Shown piece after piece: positions 27,844-56,657 of a DNA stretch of 64,000 bases. This stretch comes from Bacillota bacterium (GTDB taxonomy: Bacteria > Bacillota > Sulfobacillia > JACIYH01). The notes under the pieces were generated by a model. It was not told the DNA's origin. It was given only the letters and a program-made list of their open reading frames with translations, and did not search any database. Numbering within the stretch: position 1 is the stretch's first letter; each line of letters opens with the position of its first letter. The DNA lies in the NCBI GenBank assembly GCA_030019365.1, contig JASEFA010000003.1, positions 248,001 through 312,000 on the forward strand. The letters are read 5' to 3'. Position numbers and translations under genes: made by a program.

Positions 27844-27951
27844 GGGGCTGGTGGAGCAGCCCTGCCCGTGCGGTATAGGCCTGGGGCTGGTGGAGCAGCC
27901 CTGCCCGTGTGGTACAGGCCTGGGGCTGGTGCAGCGGCCCGGCCCGTGCGG
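27844..27951 (+). repeat. Three tandem 39-bp repeats, each with a hairpin
   Basis: Copies start at 27844, 27883 and 27922; the third is partial (about 30 bp). Each contains GGGCTG-N6-CAGCCC, a perfect stem; in copy 3 the right arm has changed to CGGCCC, which still pairs through a G-U wobble. The block fills the gap between the COG3044 ATPase and tldD. Confidence 0.8.
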
Positions 27952-27995: not shown

Positions 27996-29507
27996 ATGCG
28001 AGAAGTCGCGCGCAAGGCACTGGATGCGGCGCGCGCCCGCGGGGCGGCCTACGCCGACGCCCGCGTGGTGACCCGCCGCGAAGAAGATGTGGTCACCAAG
28101 AACGGTAAGGTCGAATCGATTTCCGCGTCGCAGTCGCGCGGCATCGGGGTGCGCGTCCTGGTGGACGGGGCGTGGGGCTTCGCCTCCAGTTCGGCGCTGG
28201 ATGACCGCGAGGTGATGCGCATCGCGGAGAAGGCGGTGGAAGTCGCCCGTGCCAGCGCCCTGGTGAGATCCGACCCGCCCGTCGAGCTGGCTCCCGTGGA
28301 TGCGGTGGAGGACCGCTGGGAGTCGCCGGTGAAGGAGGATCCCTTCTCGGTCAAGCTGGAGGACAAGATCGACCTCCTCCTGAAGGCGGACCGCCTGATG
28401 CGCAAGGATCCCCGCATCAGGGTGGCCCAGGGCTCGGTGTCGGTGTTCCGCGAGGACAAGGTCTTCGCCAGCACCGAGGGTACTTACGTGGAGCAGAGCA
28501 AGACGGAGACAGGTGCCGGGATCTCTGCCCTGGCCGCCGAGGCGGGCGAGGTGCAGCGCCGCTCCTATCCCTCATCTTTCGGCGGTGACTATGCCGCCAG
28601 GGGATACGAGTGCGTGCGGGAGATGGACCTGGTCGGCCACGCCGAGCAGGTGGCGGACGAGGCGCTGGCCCTGCTGCAGGCCCCGCAGTGCCCGTCGGGT
28701 ACCACCACCGTGATCCTGGGGTCGGGGCAGCTGGCCCTCCAGGTGCACGAGTCGTGCGGCCACCCCAGCGAACTGGACCGCGTTTTCGGCACCGAGGCCT
28801 CCTACGCCGGGACCAGCTTCATCACGCCCGACAAGCTGGGCAAGCTGCAATACGGCTCCGCGGCGGTGAACATTGTGGCCGACGCCACCATCCCTGGGGG
28901 CCTGGGCAGCTTCGGTTACGACGACGAAGGTGTCCCCGCCCAGCGCGTCCCCCTGGTGCGCAACGGTCTCTACGTGAACTACCTCACCTCGCGGGAGACC
29001 GTCGCCCGCCTCGCCCGCCACCTCGACCGTGGCGCGGCCGCCACGGCGGGCGGTGACGCAGCGACCGGCGCGCAGGGCGTCAGGGCCAACGGGACCATGC
29101 GGGCCGACGGCTGGAACCGATTGCCCATCATCCGCATGACCAACATCAACCTGGAGCCGGGGGACTGGAGCCTGGACGAGCTCATCCGCGACACCCGTGA
29201 CGGGATCTACATGGAGACCAACAAGTCCTGGTCCATCGACGACAAGCGCCTCAACTTCCAGTTCGGCACCGAGATCGCCTGGGAGATCAAGGACGGTTCC
29301 CTGGGGCGCATGCTCAGGAATCCCACGTACACGGGTATCACCCCGGAGTTCTGGGGCTCCTGCGACGCCGTCTGCGACCGCAAGCACTGGCACCTGTGGG
29401 GACTGCCCAACTGCGGCAAGGGCGAGCCCCCCCAGGCGGCCCACGTGGGGCACGGGACCGCGCCGGCACGCTTCCGCAACGTCAGAGTGGGGGTGGGAAA
29501 ATGGTAG
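27996..29507 (+). CDS. tldD: Metalloprotease TldD
   Basis: Zinc-dependent protease subunit of the TldD/TldE heterodimer, which degrades unfolded peptides and, in some species, trims modified peptides such as microcins. The 503-residue protein carries the metal-binding motif H-E-S-C-G-H at about residues 251-256, in LQVHESCGHPSELD, plus GTEASYAGTSFI and the C-terminal GTCGKxGQ-equivalent LPNCGKGEPPQAAHVGHG-like region with conserved Cys. I chose ATG 27996 (MREVARKALDAAR); the frame is open to 27909 but through the repeat block. It overlaps tldE by 7 bp. Confidence 0.93.
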   Translation: MREVARKALDAARARGAAYADARVVTRREEDVVTKNGKVESISASQSRGIGVRVLVDGAWGFASSSALDDREVMRIAEKAVEVARASALVRSDPPVELAPVDAVEDRWESPVKEDPFSVKLEDKIDLLLKADRLMRKDPRIRVAQGSVSVFREDKVFASTEGTYVEQSKTETGAGISALAAEAGEVQRRSYPSSFGGDYAARGYECVREMDLVGHAEQVADEALALLQAPQCPSGTTTVILGSGQLALQVHESCGHPSELDRVFGTEASYAGTSFITPDKLGKLQYGSAAVNIVADATIPGGLGSFGYDDEGVPAQRVPLVRNGLYVNYLTSRETVARLARHLDRGAAATAGGDAATGAQGVRANGTMRADGWNRLPIIRMTNINLEPGDWSLDELIRDTRDGIYMETNKSWSIDDKRLNFQFGTEIAWEIKDGSLGRMLRNPTYTGITPEFWGSCDAVCDRKHWHLWGLPNCGKGEPPQAAHVGHGTAPARFRNVRVGVGKW

Positions 29508-30838
29508 GCAAGGAGGCCGCACTGGCCCTGCTGGGGAAGGTGCTGTCCCTCTCCCCCGGGGACGCCACCGAGGCCATGGTCTACGGGGGTGACTCTTACC
29601 TCACCCGCTACGCCTGCAACTACATCCACCAGAACGTGGGCGAGCACAACACCAGCCTCACGGTGAAGGTGCGCTTCGGGCAGAAGGTGGGGCAGGCCAC
29701 CACCAACCGGCTGGACGATGCCTCCCTCGGGGAGGTCGTGCGCCAGGCGGCGGAGATCGCCCGCGTGCAGCCCGACAACCCGGAGCTGCCGCCCCTCCCC
29801 GAGCCGCGCGACATCCCGGTGGTGGATGCCTTCGTGCCGGCCACCGCGGAGTGCACCCCGCTCGACCGCGCGCGGGGGGCACGGGAGGTCATCGAGATCG
29901 CCCGTGCGATGGGATTTGAGGCTGCCGGCGCTTTCTCCACCACGGCCGCGGAGATAGCGGTGGCCAACAGCCGCGGCGTGCGCGCCTATCACGCCGGCAC
30001 CATGGCCGTCCTGTCGGCGGTGGTGATGGCCCCCGATTCCGCCGGGTTTGCGTCGGCCGCCTCCACCGACGTGGGGCGCGTCGACCCCCGCGCCGTGGGG
30101 CAGCGTGCTGCCGCCAAGTGCCGCGACAGCCGCAACAGCGTCAAGGTGGAGCCCGGCGAGTACGAGGTGGTGCTGGAGCCTCTGGCGGTGGCCGACCTGG
30201 TGGAGTACATTGGGCGGCTGGGCTTCTCCGCGGAGGCCTACCAGGAGGGGCGCAGCTTCGTGTGCGGCAAGCTGGGCGAGCAGATCATGCATCCCACGGT
30301 GACCATCTGGGATGATGGCGCCGACAGGCGCGGATTGCCCCTGCCCTTCGACGCCGAGGGGGTGCCCAAGCAGAAGGTGGTGATGGTAGGCGGCGGCCGG
30401 GCCAACGCGCTCGTGTACGACAGCCGCACCGCCCATCGCGAAGGCAAATCGAGCACCGGCCACGCCACCACGTGGGGATGGTGGTCGGGTCCCATGCCCA
30501 GCAACCTGTTCATGGCCCCCGGGGATGCCACCCTGGAGGAGATGATCGCGTCCACGCGCCGCGGCATCCTGGTGACCCGGTTCCACTACACGAACCCCGT
30601 GCATCCCGTGCGCGGCATCATCACCGGCATGACCCGGGACGGCACCTGGCTGATCGAGAACGGCGAGATCCGCACCCCGGTGAAGAACTTCCGCTTCACC
30701 CAGGGGCTGGTGGAGGCCTTCTCCGCCGTGGAGGCCATCGGGCGTGAGTTGGTGCTCGTCAGTGAAGGTTTTGGCAGCACCGTGGTGCCGGCGCTCAAGC
30801 TATCGCGCTTCAACTTCACCGGCGTCACCGAATTCTAG
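29501..30838 (+). CDS. tldE: TldE/PmbA-like partner of TldD
   Basis: The 445-residue partner lacks the HExxxH motif, as expected for TldE. It shows the family's N-terminal VKVRFGQKVGQATTNRLDD, a central VAVNSRG-type stretch AVANSRGVRAYHAG, and the C-terminal FHYTNPVHPVRGIITGMTRD and NFRFTQGLVEAFSAVEAIG. The ATG lies inside the tldD stop region (ATGGTAG, 7 bp overlap), so translation is coupled. Together they form the protease; no modified-peptide precursor gene is recognisable nearby. Confidence 0.92.
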   Translation: MVGKEAALALLGKVLSLSPGDATEAMVYGGDSYLTRYACNYIHQNVGEHNTSLTVKVRFGQKVGQATTNRLDDASLGEVVRQAAEIARVQPDNPELPPLPEPRDIPVVDAFVPATAECTPLDRARGAREVIEIARAMGFEAAGAFSTTAAEIAVANSRGVRAYHAGTMAVLSAVVMAPDSAGFASAASTDVGRVDPRAVGQRAAAKCRDSRNSVKVEPGEYEVVLEPLAVADLVEYIGRLGFSAEAYQEGRSFVCGKLGEQIMHPTVTIWDDGADRRGLPLPFDAEGVPKQKVVMVGGGRANALVYDSRTAHREGKSSTGHATTWGWWSGPMPSNLFMAPGDATLEEMIASTRRGILVTRFHYTNPVHPVRGIITGMTRDGTWLIENGEIRTPVKNFRFTQGLVEAFSAVEAIGRELVLVSEGFGSTVVPALKLSRFNFTGVTEF

Positions 30839-30884: not shown

Positions 30885-31075
30885 GCGTCAAGAATGACGC
30901 AGCCAGGGCCTGGCTAATGCGTCAGGAATTGACGTGGCCAAGGCCGGGGTACCGAGTCAAGAAATGACCCCGGGCGGGCCCTGACGGCGGATCAAAAAAT
31001 GGCGCCGAGTAGGCTCGGATGGTGCATCAAAAACTGACGCGGCTACGGTAGGGATGCCACGTCAAAAAATGACGC
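30885..31075 (+). repeat. Six-unit array of interrupted palindromes, period 35 bp
   Basis: Repeats start at 30885, 30919, 30954, 30989, 31024 and 31059. Consensus is GCGTCA-(A/G-rich 4-5 bp)-TGACGC; copy 1 is 16 bp, the rest 17 bp. Copies 3 to 6 have one to three changes in the left arm, while the right arm TGACGC is best kept. Each 18-bp spacer holds its own inverted repeat of different sequence: AGCCAG-GGC-CTGGCT, GGCC-AA-GGCC, GGGC-GG-GCCC, CGAG-TAGG-CTCG, CTAC-G-GTAG. The period is not a multiple of three, so the array is not coding. The last copy overlaps the 5' end of the next gene. Confidence 0.9.
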
Positions 31076-31947
31076 CGGACCAGTCGGCGGGTCGGGGATG
31101 GGTAGGAGGAATTCGACAGGTCCCTGCCAAATATGTCAGTATGAGGAAGCTGCTGTCGGTGCCGGCCGGGCTGGCAAGCGACCGTTCGTTGCCATCCCCA
31201 GCCAAGGGAATCTACCTCGTGCTGGCGAACCTTGGTGCCCAGGAGCGACCGGACGAGCCGATCTGTGCGCGGCCAAAGACCCTGCTTGAGGCTACCGGAC
31301 TGAACCATCCCCTGACGCTCAAGCGGTGGCTGGCCAGACTCGAGCAGGCGGGGTGGATCCGGATTGAGCCTGCTGGTCGTGGCGCAATGTTGATCTCGCT
31401 CACCAGCCCGGGCCAGGTAGAACTAGCCGAGGTGATGAGGCGTCTGGAGTCAGCCGACTTCAAAGGTCAAGCCCTAACCCGGGAATGGGCGAGGCGGCTG
31501 GTGGTTGATCGGCCGTATCAGGAGAATGCGGAGCCTCCGTTCTTGGTGAATCCCCTGACCAGCTGCCCCCTGCAATACGACATTTACTTTCCACCGGATG
31601 TGGCCATCGAGTTCAACGGGCCCCAGCACTACGGCCCCACCGAGAAGTATCCGGATGCTGAGGCGGCCACCATGCGCAGGGCCCTTGACCTCATCAAGCT
31701 CGGCCTGAGCGTCAGGCACGGTGTGCATCTGGTGATCATTGACCCGGAGGACCTGACTCTGGAGCGGATGCGCGCTAAAATCAAGGGGCTGCTGCCCCTG
31801 CGCCCGGTCGAGGAGGATGACCCGGTCATACGGTACGTCGCCAGGGTCAGCAACGCCTACATCAGGCAGTGCAGGCGGGAACGTCGCCAGGAGTCCGCGG
31901 AGATGGGGTGGTCAGGGATGGGGAGGCGTGGCGCTCCGAGGGGTTGA
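31054..31947 (+). CDS. Winged-helix protein fused to a restriction-endonuclease-fold domain
   Basis: I do not recognise this 297-residue protein by name. Residues about 48-115 read as a winged helix-turn-helix (SPAKGIYLVLANLG, ARPKTLLEATGL, TLKRWLARLEQAGWIRI). Residues about 165-260 resemble the Vsr/DUF559-like restriction-endonuclease fold: YDIYFPPDVAIEFNGPQHY (acidic Asp, then E-x-N-G and Q-H), then a Lys/Arg-rich helix and GVHLVIIDPEDL. It may therefore bind DNA and cut or nick it. The start is unclear: ATG 31054 and 31069 lie in the last palindrome, ATG 31141 begins the conserved-looking part but lacks a ribosome site, and an AGGAGG at 31104 has no ordinary in-frame start after it. By eye it is less GC-rich than its neighbours. 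pcrA starts 26 bp downstream. Confidence 0.7.
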   Translation: MPRQKMTPDQSAGRGWVGGIRQVPAKYVSMRKLLSVPAGLASDRSLPSPAKGIYLVLANLGAQERPDEPICARPKTLLEATGLNHPLTLKRWLARLEQAGWIRIEPAGRGAMLISLTSPGQVELAEVMRRLESADFKGQALTREWARRLVVDRPYQENAEPPFLVNPLTSCPLQYDIYFPPDVAIEFNGPQHYGPTEKYPDAEAATMRRALDLIKLGLSVRHGVHLVIIDPEDLTLERMRAKIKGLLPLRPVEEDDPVIRYVARVSNAYIRQCRRERRQESAEMGWSGMGRRGAPRG

Positions 31948-31972: not shown

Positions 31973-34480
31973 GTGGGGGCACGGAAGCGAGAAGGCTGGG
32001 AGAGAGAACTGCTGGAGGGCTTGAATGAGGCGCAGCGGGAGGCGGTGACCTGGCCGGGGGGACCGCTGCTGGTGCTGGCGGGGGCGGGGTCGGGCAAGAC
32101 CAGGGTGCTGGCCTACCGCATCGCCTGGTTGATTGCCGGCAGGGTGCCGCCCGACGGCATCCTGGCCATGACCTTCACGAACAAGGCGGCGGGCGAGATG
32201 GCCCAGCGCGTGCAGGATCTGCTCCACCGGTGCTTCCCCGGGCTGGCGGGGCGTGCGGGCGAGGGTGGGGCCAGCCAGCAGCAAGCGGCCCCTGCCGGTC
32301 GCAGCGAGGCGCTCGGCGGCTGGGATGGCGCCGCCGGTGGTGGCGGGGTGCGCGGCGGCGGGGATGGCGCCGCCGGTGGTGGCGGGGGTGCGTGCGGCGG
32401 CGGGGATGGTGCCGCCGGTGGTGATGAGCGGGGGCGGCAGATGTGGATGGGGACGTTTCATGCGGTGTGCGTGCGTATCCTGCGCCCCCATGCCGAGAAG
32501 CTGGGGTATGGCAAACGCTTTGGGATAGCCGATGCCGACGACCAGGCTCAACTGGTGCGCGCCATCGTCCGCGACCTGGGGGTGGAGGAGACGCACAAGC
32601 CGGGTGGGGTGCTGGCGGTGATCGGGAGGGCCAAGGACCAGCTGGTGACGCCGGGGGAGTACGTGGCGCGGGCGCGAGGCTTCTGGGAGGAGAAGACGGG
32701 GGAGATCTACCGCCTTTACCAGGACAGGCTGCGGGAGTCCAATCTGATGGATTTCGATGACCTGCTGCTGAACACCGTGCGCCTCTTCGGCGAGCATGAC
32801 GAGGTGCTGGAAGGATATGCGCGGCGGTTCCTGCACATCCTGGTGGACGAATTCCAGGACACCAACCGGGTGCAGTACATACTGCTGCGACAACTGGCGT
32901 CCCACCACGGTAACCTCACCGTGGTGGGGGACGATGACCAGTCCATCTACGGATTTCGGGGGGCCGACCTCCGGAACATCCTGGACTTCGAGCATGACTT
33001 CCCCGGGACCCACGTGGTGCGGTTGGAGCAGAACTACCGGTCCACCCAGGTGATCCTGGACGCCGCCCACGGGGTGATCAAACACAACCGCGGCCGCAAG
33101 GGGAAGCGGCTGTGGACGGAACGGGATGGGGGGACCCCCGTGTTCCTCTACCGGGCCGAAAACGAGCACGACGAGGCGCGGTTCATCGTGCGGGAGGCCG
33201 AGCGCCTGGTCGAACAGGAGGGTCACCGCCTCTCGGACGTGGCGGTGCTGTACCGCACCCACGCCCAGTCGCGCGTCCTGGAGGAGGCCTTCCTCCGCCA
33301 CGGGGTGGCCTACGTGGTGGTGGGGTCGGTGCACTTCTACCAGCGCAGGGAGATCAAGGACGTCCTGGCCTACCTGCGGGCGGCCCTCAACCCCCGCGAT
33401 GACGTCAGCACGGAACGCATCATCAACGTACCCCGCCGCGGCATCGGGGAGGAGACGGTGCGCCGGCTCAAGGATTTCGCCCGGCGCGAGGGCATTGGCC
33501 TCCGGGAGGCGGCCGCGCACCCCGCCGACGCCGGATTGGGGAAGGCGGCGTGCCGCCGGGTGGAGGAGTTTGCCCACCTGCTGGATGAGGTCGAGCAGCG
33601 CCTGGATCGGCCCGTGCACGAGGTGATCGGCTGGGTACTGGAGCACACCGGGTATCTGGCCGAGTTGCAGGCGGAACGCACGCGCGAGGCCGGGGACCGC
33701 ATCGAGAACCTGCGCGAGCTGGTCAACTCGGCGGCAGAGTTCTCGCAGCGCTCGCCTGACTACAGGGCGGAGGCGTTCCTGGCCGAGGTGGCCCTGTTCA
33801 CCAGCGTGGACGCGACCCGGGCCGGAGGGCCCGCAGTTACCCTGATGACGCTGCACGCGGCCAAGGGCCTGGAGTTCCCGGTGGTGTTCCTGGCCGGGCT
33901 GGAGGAGGGGGTTTTCCCGCACACCCGCTCCTTCGAGAGCGAGGACGAGCTGGAGGAGGAGCGGCGGCTCTGCTACGTCGGCATGACGCGCGCCCGCGAC
34001 CGCCTCTACCTCACCCACTCGCGCCACCGCCAGCTCCACGGCGGCCGGGTGATGCCGTCCCGGTTCCTGGAGGAAGTCCCACGCCGCCTGGTGGAGGAAC
34101 TGGCATCCCCCGACGAGTTTTCGTATGTCGGAAGCGGGGCCCCGCACCGCGATGTGGCCGCCCCCACGCGCCGCAGGGGCCATGGTCGCACCCTCGATGG
34201 CTCTGCGGCCAGCGCCTCCGCTCGTGGGGCCTCTGCCGCTCTGGCCGGCGGTACCCCGGTGGATGAGGTGTCGGCCGGCCGGGGGGGGAAGTTATGGCGG
34301 GGAGAGCCCCTTGCGCCGGGGCGCAAAGTGAGGCATCCTCATTTCGGGACAGGCGTAGTGCTGTCCTGCCGGGGCGAGGGCGAGGACGCCGAAGCGAAGG
34401 TGGCGTTCTACGAGAACGGCGTCCGGACCCTGGTGGCGCGATACGCCCACCTGGACCTCGTCGGGGAAGATGGGAGATGA
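31973..34480 (+). CDS. pcrA: ATP-dependent 3'-5' DNA helicase PcrA/UvrD
   Basis: Superfamily 1A helicase acting in repair and replication-fork maintenance. The 835-residue protein shows the Q-motif LNEAQREAV, Walker A GAGSGKTRVLAYRI, motif Ia TFTNKAAGEM, motif II LVDEFQDTN, motif III GDDDQSIYGFRGA, motif IV RLEQNYRST, motif V TLMTLHAAKGLEFPVV and motif VI YVGMTRARDRLYL. The C-terminus has the PcrA-type Tudor-like end GRKVRHPHFGTGVVLS. GTG 31973 was chosen (GGAGG seven bases upstream). An insertion of about 70 Gly/Ala-rich residues sits between motif Ia and GTFHAVCVRILR, where homologues have a short loop. ligA follows 21 bp downstream, the usual pcrA-ligA arrangement. Confidence 0.95.
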   Translation: MGARKREGWERELLEGLNEAQREAVTWPGGPLLVLAGAGSGKTRVLAYRIAWLIAGRVPPDGILAMTFTNKAAGEMAQRVQDLLHRCFPGLAGRAGEGGASQQQAAPAGRSEALGGWDGAAGGGGVRGGGDGAAGGGGGACGGGDGAAGGDERGRQMWMGTFHAVCVRILRPHAEKLGYGKRFGIADADDQAQLVRAIVRDLGVEETHKPGGVLAVIGRAKDQLVTPGEYVARARGFWEEKTGEIYRLYQDRLRESNLMDFDDLLLNTVRLFGEHDEVLEGYARRFLHILVDEFQDTNRVQYILLRQLASHHGNLTVVGDDDQSIYGFRGADLRNILDFEHDFPGTHVVRLEQNYRSTQVILDAAHGVIKHNRGRKGKRLWTERDGGTPVFLYRAENEHDEARFIVREAERLVEQEGHRLSDVAVLYRTHAQSRVLEEAFLRHGVAYVVVGSVHFYQRREIKDVLAYLRAALNPRDDVSTERIINVPRRGIGEETVRRLKDFARREGIGLREAAAHPADAGLGKAACRRVEEFAHLLDEVEQRLDRPVHEVIGWVLEHTGYLAELQAERTREAGDRIENLRELVNSAAEFSQRSPDYRAEAFLAEVALFTSVDATRAGGPAVTLMTLHAAKGLEFPVVFLAGLEEGVFPHTRSFESEDELEEERRLCYVGMTRARDRLYLTHSRHRQLHGGRVMPSRFLEEVPRRLVEELASPDEFSYVGSGAPHRDVAAPTRRRGHGRTLDGSAASASARGASAALAGGTPVDEVSAGRGGKLWRGEPLAPGRKVRHPHFGTGVVLSCRGEGEDAEAKVAFYENGVRTLVARYAHLDLVGEDGR
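32316..32425 (+). repeat. In-frame tandem repeats inside pcrA
   Basis: Three imperfect units of 39-42 bp begin at about 32316, 32352 and 32394 and encode a repeated Gly-Asp-Gly-Ala-Ala-Gly-Gly block (DGAAGGGGVRGG, DGAAGGGGGACGG, DGAAGGDERG). Unit lengths are multiples of three, so the frame is kept. They form most of the low-complexity insertion in domain 1. Confidence 0.8.
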
Positions 34481-38054: not shown

Positions 38055-38428
38055 TCCAGCACCTCCCAGCCGCTGATCTGCACCGTCGCACGCCTGCCAG
38101 AGCGGACAGAGTCGGGGGTCGCCTTCGTGCCACCAGGGGTACGGCCAGAAACCGTGAAACCGACCGACCGGTCGGCCTCACCACTCGCTCCTGGGAATCC
38201 ATGGGTGACCGCGCTCGGATTCCCCGTCATCGCTACCGGTGCTCAGACCCCACCCCTGTCTGTCTAGGAAAGACTACCCAGTGGTCGCTTTCGACATGCG
38301 CCGGGAAACTCCTTCTCCCTTGCGGAGACGGGAGCCGGGTCGTCCCCGCGTGAAGCAAGCAGCATCCGCGCCCTGCGCATTCAACCGGAGCGGCCGAACA
38401 GGCGACCGGCGGGAGGCACAGTGAGGAG
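38055..38428. other. Intergenic region upstream of the actin-like gene
   Basis: No convincing coding frame. It holds the 12-bp palindrome at 38164-38175 and otherwise GC-rich unique sequence. It presumably carries the promoter of the actin-like/bactofilin pair, but I cannot place clear -35/-10 boxes. Confidence 0.4.
38164..38175. promoter_or_regulatory. Perfect palindrome, operator-like
   Basis: CCGACCGGTCGG is a perfect 12-bp palindrome, 110 bp before the actin-like ATG. ACCGACCGGT-type palindromes are common TetR-family operators. No TetR gene is in the window, so the link is only suggestive. Confidence 0.35.
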
Positions 38429-56404: not shown

Positions 56405-56466
56405 TCGTTCCCGACGGGTTCCCGTTCCCGGCCGGACTGCCGTTTCCGGGGGCTCCTTCTCCCGGG

Positions 56467-56568
56467 TCGCCCTCCCTACGCTGGCATTGCCCGGATCAGG
56501 TTCCAAGGGTTGAGCGGGGTGCTCTCCCAGCTCGCAGTTCTCTCCCCACCGCGAGCACCCCTGGGCGA
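56467..56568 (-). promoter_or_regulatory. TPP (THI-box) riboswitch, orphan
   Basis: On the minus strand the textbook core GGAACCTGATCCGGGCAAT-GCCAGCGTAGGGA is intact, with GGGGTGCTCGC and the GGAGAG joining segment upstream. P1 closes as TCGCCC/GGGCGA (56568-56563 with 56472-56467). Reading direction is leftwards, but no intact gene lies downstream on that strand: first comes the antisense of the Nudix gene, then the broken thi4. Confidence 0.93.
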
Positions 56569-56657
56569 TTCGCTTTGCTCCAATGTGACACGGGTGAGCC
56601 CCGGCGGCAATACCGGTCGGGTCCGGCAGGCGGGCCAAACGACTTGTCAGGAGCGCC

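What the first reader, a model, noticed from the sequence alone, without database searches (positions are those of the whole stretch)
30885..31947. 35-bp-period palindrome array abutting a winged-helix/nuclease-fold gene
Six copies of GCGTCA-N4/5-TGACGC recur at a 34-35 bp period, and each 18-bp spacer contains a hairpin whose arms differ in sequence from spacer to spacer yet keep pairing. The array runs into the start of a gene whose product combines a winged helix with a Vsr/DUF559-like nuclease fold. The layout recalls iterons with a replication initiator, or REP palindromes with their RAYT nuclease, but matches neither. A protein that binds the array to regulate itself, or that nicks it, would be a new kind of element. 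The array and the domain patterns are seen; the functional link is inferred.
Basis: partly seen in the sequence, partly recalled or inferred. Interest (0 to 1): 0.8.

Follow-up and report, generated by a model that had tools for sequence, protein, structure and literature searches.

The report
Nuclease gene with its own repeats
A little-known bacterial protein that joins a DNA-binding head to a DNA-cutting domain tends to sit beside its own private array of mirror-image DNA repeats, and in at least one related species such repeats have spread to more than twenty places in the genome, which suggests a new kind of repeat-and-nuclease partnership.

Summary
The array is real: six degenerate palindromes (consensus GCGTCA-[A-rich 4-5]-TGACGC) at 34/35/35/35/35 bp, window 30885-31075. 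The spacer hairpins are not better than shuffled DNA. The gene starts at 31141 (268 aa), not inside the array. AlphaFold (pLDDT 93) gives an initiator/MarR-like winged helix plus a Vsr-like, homing-endonuclease-type (EDxHD) domain. The family is patchy and multi-copy (up to 11 per genome) across the phylum. About 44% of homologues have a tandem array just upstream, against 9-13% of controls (p=9e-8; partly independent set p=0.001), usually with a different sequence per locus. Array plus gene are absent together from the same site in a sister species. In one relative (G024, apparently Symbiobacterium thermophilum) the inverted motifs of two gene-linked arrays recur 64 and 108 times, in about two dozen extragenic arrays; convergent pairs keep a fixed 32- or 35-bp spacing although the spacer sequences are unrelated. 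A sister species carries a variant motif, again at 32 bp. Best reading: the protein recognises, and probably cuts, its own inverted repeats, working like REP/RAYT but with an unrelated nuclease. The window copy lacks satellites and has E110Q and R148I, so it may be a decayed member. Binding and cutting are inferred.

The parts
30885..31075 (.). array of six degenerate palindromes, GCGTCA-(4-5 A/G-rich)-TGACGC, 34-35 bp apart; equivalently five 30-bp inverted repeats TGACGC-N18-GCGTCA joined by 5-bp A-rich linkers
   Evidence: direct reading; coordinates and spacing; more dyads than in any of 1000 shuffles; unique in genome
31141..31947 (+). gene of the wHTH-nuclease protein (268 aa, ATG start; the longer 297-aa ORF from 31054 would start inside the array)
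   Evidence: ORF; homologues align from this Met
31141..31413 (+). N-terminal winged helix (residues 1-91), initiator/MarR-like
   Evidence: AF2 model pLDDT 93; best match RepA initiator N-domain 4pql Z 11.9, rmsd 2.0, 89 aligned; Pfam wHTH families in homologues
31459..31800 (+). C-terminal Vsr-like / EDxHD homing-endonuclease-type nuclease domain (residues 107-220)
   Evidence: domain model pLDDT 94.8; 3r3p I-Bth0305I Z 8.9, Vsr 1cw0 Z 8.2; sequence matches to phage homing-endonuclease families in 46 of 47 members
31468..31470 (+). residue 110, Gln here, Glu in 41 of 48 family members (putative catalytic E)
31579..31584 (+). D147 (47 of 48) and I148 (Arg in 44 of 48)
31609..31629 (+). E157-F-N-G160-P-Q162-H163, invariant E, G, Q, H
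31687..31698 (+). D183 (47 of 48) and invariant K186
29501..30838 (+). left neighbour, PmbA/TldD-type metalloprotease; flank of the empty site
   Evidence: Pfam PF19289; adjacent to pcrA in sister genome G001
32018..34480 (+). right neighbour, PcrA/UvrD helicase; flank of the empty site

Best explanation
The gene belongs to a family of free-standing proteins that join a winged-helix DNA reader to a homing-endonuclease-type (Vsr-like, EDxHD) cutter. Each member recognises a private inverted-repeat motif, and an array of that motif usually lies directly upstream of its gene, where it is also placed to control it. Cutting or nicking in the motif would drive local duplication of the array and, in some genomes, seeding of motif pairs elsewhere, so array and gene behave as a small self-linked, probably selfish or partly domesticated unit that works like a REP/RAYT pair but with an unrelated nuclease. 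Shown by computation: fold, patchy multi-copy distribution, array enrichment, joint absence from a sister genome, dispersed motif families with fixed pair spacing, and a species-specific motif variant next to an orthologue. Inferred: binding of the motif by the cognate protein, cutting, and spread by the protein. The window copy looks like a solitary, possibly decayed member.
For: Fold: wHTH closest to RepA initiator N-domain; C-domain 3r3p Z 8.9 and Vsr Z 8.2; PHROG homing-endonuclease families hit 46 of 47 members; invariant E157, G160, Q162, H163, K186. Distribution: 36 of 154 class genomes, up to 11 copies; 29 of 398 genomes in the phylum. Array enrichment: gaps of 300 bp or more with an array, 27 of 62 focal against 11 of 129 control (p=9e-8); out-of-class set 15 of 34 against 8 of 62, p=0.001. 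Joint presence/absence: pmbA-pcrA gap without array or gene in G001; a second locus absent from G001 and G002. Motif families in G024: 64 and 108 exact copies, reversed-pattern control 0, 0-2 in the six other genomes searched; convergent pairs 32 bp in 18 of 19 and 35 bp in 14 of 14; spacers 37-38% identical between arrays, 80-100% within; arrays extragenic and without the gene. G135, whose protein is 70% identical to the G024 one, has the variant GGCARAATGTGCA 12 times against 2 in G024, again paired at 32 bp.
Against: More than half of the homologues have no array found by TRF. The window array has no satellites, and the window protein departs at two conserved sites (E110Q, R148I). Only G024, and more weakly G135, show clear dispersal. 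No biochemical evidence exists. Array sequences differ even between the window gene and its 56%-identical orthologue L033, so co-evolution is shown for only a few pairs. Association does not prove direction: the gene may have settled beside repeats.
Confidence: 0.6

Rival explanations
1. The array is only an operator: the winged helix binds the palindromes at the promoter and represses its own gene; the nuclease acts elsewhere (for example on invading DNA) and neither cuts nor spreads the array.
For: Array lies just upstream, over the likely promoter; wHTH of MarR/RepA type; palindromes at a regular 35-bp pitch.
Against: Does not explain about two dozen extragenic arrays of the same motif without the gene in G024, or arrays of large, recently duplicated units.
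Confidence: 0.2
2. Reverse causality: repeat arrays arise for other reasons and the nuclease gene, a free-standing homing-type gene, tends to insert next to them.
For: Empty sites; nuclease domain of homing type; arrays without the gene.
Against: Arrays lie mostly on the upstream side, and both G024 motif families sit directly upstream of different paralogues; the motif variant follows the orthologue between species.
Confidence: 0.1
3. Coincidence: ordinary tandem repeats in roomy, weakly constrained intergenic DNA of horizontally acquired genes.
For: About 9% of comparable gaps also have arrays; the window array is unique and degenerate.
Against: Length-matched and independent-set enrichment; fixed 32/35-bp geometry with unrelated spacers.
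Confidence: 0.07
4. Relic of a replicon: an initiator with iterons captured in the chromosome.
For: wHTH best match is the RepA initiator of staphylococcal plasmids; HTH_36 is also used by the pPR9 initiator (PMC5703833); regular array.
Against: Chromosomal between pmbA and pcrA; no match in 72,556 plasmid records; C-domain is a nuclease, not a primase-contacting domain; arrays differ at every locus.
Confidence: 0.03

Closest known systems
REP/REPIN repeats with RAYT (TnpA-REP) nucleases, 'REPtrons' (PMC3116915, PMC8266576)
   Same: single-copy nuclease gene beside a cluster of its own inverted-repeat motif; the same motif dispersed as inverted pairs in extragenic DNA, with conserved pair spacing; each nuclease with its own motif; local tandem arrays
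   Different: nuclease is wHTH plus Vsr-like, not a Y1 HUH enzyme; large tandem arrays dominate; several members per genome, many without satellites; no evidence that single-stranded hairpins matter
EDxHD / Vsr-like homing endonucleases (I-Bth0305I)
   Same: catalytic fold and most catalytic positions; I-Bth0305I dimerises on a target of nearly 60 bp (PMC3943268), and the G024 motif pair spans 45 bp (family B, 13+19+13) to 49 bp (family A, 14+21+14)
   Different: N-terminal initiator-like winged helix; not in an intron or a phage gene; coupled to a repeat array
RepA_N / HTH_36 plasmid initiators with iterons (PMC5703833)
   Same: winged-helix fold; repeated binding sites close to the gene; A/T-rich tracts in sites
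   Different: nuclease domain instead of a host-contact domain; no replicon context
Vsr very-short-patch-repair endonuclease
   Same: nuclease fold (1cw0 Z 8.2)
   Different: no DNA-reading winged helix; mismatch-specific nicking; no repeat partner

Membership tests
REP/RAYT (REPtron) | cognate nuclease is a Y1 HUH transposase | tested here: not met
   invariant residues are E157, G160, Q162, H163, K186, with no HUH pair or conserved catalytic Tyr among them; both domains positively assigned to other folds
REP/RAYT (REPtron) | repeat cluster adjacent to the nuclease gene | tested here: met
   window array; enrichment across homologues
REP/RAYT (REPtron) | same repeat dispersed as inverted pairs in extragenic space | tested here: inconclusive
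   met in G024 (64 and 108 copies, extragenic, fixed spacing) and weakly in G135; not met for the window array
EDxHD / Vsr-like nuclease superfamily | Vsr-type nuclease fold | tested here: met
   pLDDT 94.8; 3r3p Z 8.9, rmsd 2.9, 93 aligned; 1cw0 Z 8.2; PHROG sequence matches
EDxHD / Vsr-like nuclease superfamily | catalytic E, D, H, D set | tested here: inconclusive
   family has E110, D147, H163, D183, assigned by position only; the window copy has Q110
EDxHD / Vsr-like nuclease superfamily | metal-dependent DNA cleavage | not testable with these tools
   needs purified protein
homing endonuclease gene | gene interrupts the site that its product cuts | tested here: inconclusive
   empty sites exist, but they are intergenic and the exact junctions and target are not defined
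iteron replicon | array plus initiator supports replication | not testable with these tools
   chromosomal context; no plasmid match
CRISPR array | near-identical repeats with unique spacers and cas genes | tested here: not met
   repeats are degenerate 17-bp dyads; neighbours are pmbA, pcrA, ligA
structured RNA array | significant conserved folding of units | tested here: not met
   spacer and unit folding not better than shuffles; no Rfam match there

The most novel reading that the evidence does not exclude
A new class of selfish or domesticated repeat system: a winged-helix/homing-endonuclease-type protein that creates, maintains and spreads its own double-stranded inverted-repeat pairs as tandem satellite arrays, with each gene lineage evolving a private motif; an independent counterpart of REP/RAYT built on a different nuclease.
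Probability: 0.45. Interest if true: 0.88.

Novelty: new variant of a known kind. Interest (0 to 1): 0.76.

Why it matters
Most dispersed bacterial repeats have no known maker; REP/RAYT is the main worked case. A second, unrelated nuclease family tied to private inverted-repeat arrays would show that repeat-and-nuclease partnerships arose more than once, would explain many extragenic arrays in Symbiobacterium-like genomes, and offers a natural set of DNA readers of changing specificity paired with their likely sites, so specificity rules become directly testable. It also gives a name and a testable role to a large unannotated family: no Pfam or NCBIfam family covers the nuclease domain.

Tried and rejected
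Hairpin/RNA reading: spacer folding not significant, no Rfam match in the array. Array as a dispersed repeat of the window genome: unique; GTCA-N-TGACG sites elsewhere only about twofold over the reversed control and without the A-rich centre. A shared A-rich core (GAAA/GAAT) in all locus motifs: attractive by eye, but only 42% of top words against 20% background, and control arrays show it too; kept as a hint only. Searching random control DNA of the same genomes for the gene-linked words gave no excess; the 160 kb sampled in G024 is too little. First focal-versus-control repeat scan was confounded by arrays next to the focal gene in the control list; replaced by length-matched gaps from other regions. 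Defence context: PADLOC hits are weak and mostly to CARF/Csa3-type models, which I take to be the shared wHTH. Plasmid match: none. Literature: nothing found that describes the family or the arrays; the S. thermophilum genome paper is not held.

Full report
OBSERVATION. Window 30885-31075 holds six dyads at 34, 35, 35, 35 and 35 bp. They are degenerate copies of GCGTCA-[AGAA/GGAAT/AGAAA/AAAAA/AAAAC/AAAAA]-TGACGC, so the array can equally be read as 30-bp inverted repeats TGACGC-N18-GCGTCA joined by A-rich linkers. The number of dyads exceeds all of 1000 shuffles (8 against a maximum of 7, mean 1.8). The spacer hairpins do not exceed shuffles (p=0.07-0.19), and the spacers still resemble one another (49% against 30%), as expected of an old tandem duplication. 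Blastn finds the array nowhere else in its genome or in 40 relatives.

GENE. The product is best taken from ATG 31141 (268 aa); the 31054 start lies inside the sixth repeat and homologues align from 31141. Pfam and NCBIfam name nothing except weak wHTH models. AlphaFold2 with 48 homologues gives pLDDT 93. Residues 1-91 match the N-domain of the RepA initiator of staphylococcal multiresistance plasmids (4pql, Z 11.9, rmsd 2.0, 89 aligned). The C-terminal domain modelled alone (pLDDT 94.8) matches the catalytic domain of the EDxHD homing endonuclease I-Bth0305I (3r3p, Z 8.9, rmsd 2.9, 93 aligned) and Vsr (1cw0, Z 8.2); these Z values are modest but head the list, and phage homing-endonuclease families match 46 of 47 members by sequence. 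Invariant residues are E157, G160, Q162, H163 and K186; near-invariant ones include D147, R148 and D183. The window copy has Q at 110 (E in 41 of 48; 6 other members also have Q) and I at 148 (R in 44 of 48), so it may be weakened.

DISTRIBUTION. The family is patchy and multi-copy: 36 of 154 class genomes, 3 copies in the window genome, up to 11 in others; 29 of 398 genomes drawn from the phylum. In sister genome G001 pmbA and pcrA are adjacent, with neither array nor gene. A second locus (L036) is likewise missing from G001 and G002. A third locus is conserved in all three species, and its members carry a similar palindrome (GTCAGC..GCTGAC) upstream (by eye). The orthologue in G002 at the window's site (about 56% identical) has a different array with a 35-bp period.

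ARRAYS BESIDE HOMOLOGUES. In 80 class homologues plus the window, tandem-repeat coverage is 12-15% in the 800 bp upstream of the ORF and 1-2% beyond 1.2 kb. Large arrays occur at 40 per 100 kb there against 2 per 100 kb in 0.8 Mb of other DNA from 14 of the same genomes. Because upstream DNA is non-coding, I compared intergenic gaps of 300 bp or more: 27 of 62 focal against 11 of 129 control (Fisher p=9e-8). In 40 out-of-class homologues, 15 of 34 against 8 of 62 background windows (p=0.001); a few of these loci had been seen earlier, so this set is not fully blind. Motifs are usually private to a locus; credible sharing is mainly between close relatives (94-100% identical proteins, and L049/L052 at 70%, L178/L186 at 71%), the remaining cross-matches being low-complexity G+C words.

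SATELLITES. In G024 (one 3,566,135-bp contig, the size I recall for Symbiobacterium thermophilum; not verified) the motifs of two gene-linked arrays recur elsewhere: GGCGRAATGTGCA 64 times and CGCGCARAAYCTGA 108 times, reversed-pattern control 0, six other genomes 0-2. The ten satellite arrays examined in full are entirely outside called genes, and no nuclease homologue lies in the flanks of the twelve places fetched. Convergent pairs are spaced 32 bp in 18 of 19 cases and 35 bp in 14 of 14. Arms are 88-96% identical between arrays (partly by choice of pattern), inner spacers 37-38%, and 80-100% within an array. So what is kept is two arms at a fixed distance, as for a protein dimer, while the DNA between drifts. 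In G135, whose protein is 70% identical to the G024 one, the dominant form is GGCARAATGTGCA (12 against 2 in G024), with the same 32-bp spacing.

INTERPRETATION. The most economical account is that each protein reads its own inverted-repeat pair through the winged helix, with the nuclease domain acting on it. Local arrays would come from repeated breakage and repair, and dispersal from occasional seeding. This works like REPIN/RAYT (PMC3116915, PMC8266576) but is not a member: the nuclease is of another fold. I-Bth0305I itself dimerises on a target of nearly 60 bp (PMC3943268), comparable with the 45-49-bp motif pairs. Binding, cutting and spread are inferred, and the operator-only rival stays alive for loci, like the window's, that have no satellites.

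LIMITS. TRF misses diverged arrays and counts chance ones; gene calls were home-made; the taxonomy of numbered genomes is not given; dispersal is shown clearly in one genome and weakly in a second.

Noticed in passing
window 56456-56572 (-) and 38161-38246 (-): TPP riboswitch and c-di-GMP-II-GAG riboswitch, both above Rfam gathering scores.
   Followed up: no
window 32314-32423 and 27844-27951: 39-bp-period tandem repeats: one inside the pcrA/uvrD reading frame, extending a linker of the helicase (the G002 orthologue has a 39-bp array at a like place), and one at 27844-27951 at the start of the 532-aa ORF.
   Followed up: partly
L304-L313 (numbered genome G024): Two large families of extragenic tandem arrays with inverted motifs (64 and 108 motif copies) in what appears to be Symbiobacterium thermophilum; I found no description of them.
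   Followed up: yes
L327 and L330 (G466:C43 and G466:C3): Two paralogues in one out-of-class genome have upstream arrays with similar units (GGATAATGCTAACCATTA / GGACAATGCTAACCACTA), possibly another dispersed family.
   Followed up: no
L065, L074, L078, L093: Some homologues have the array directly downstream of the gene instead of upstream.
   Followed up: no
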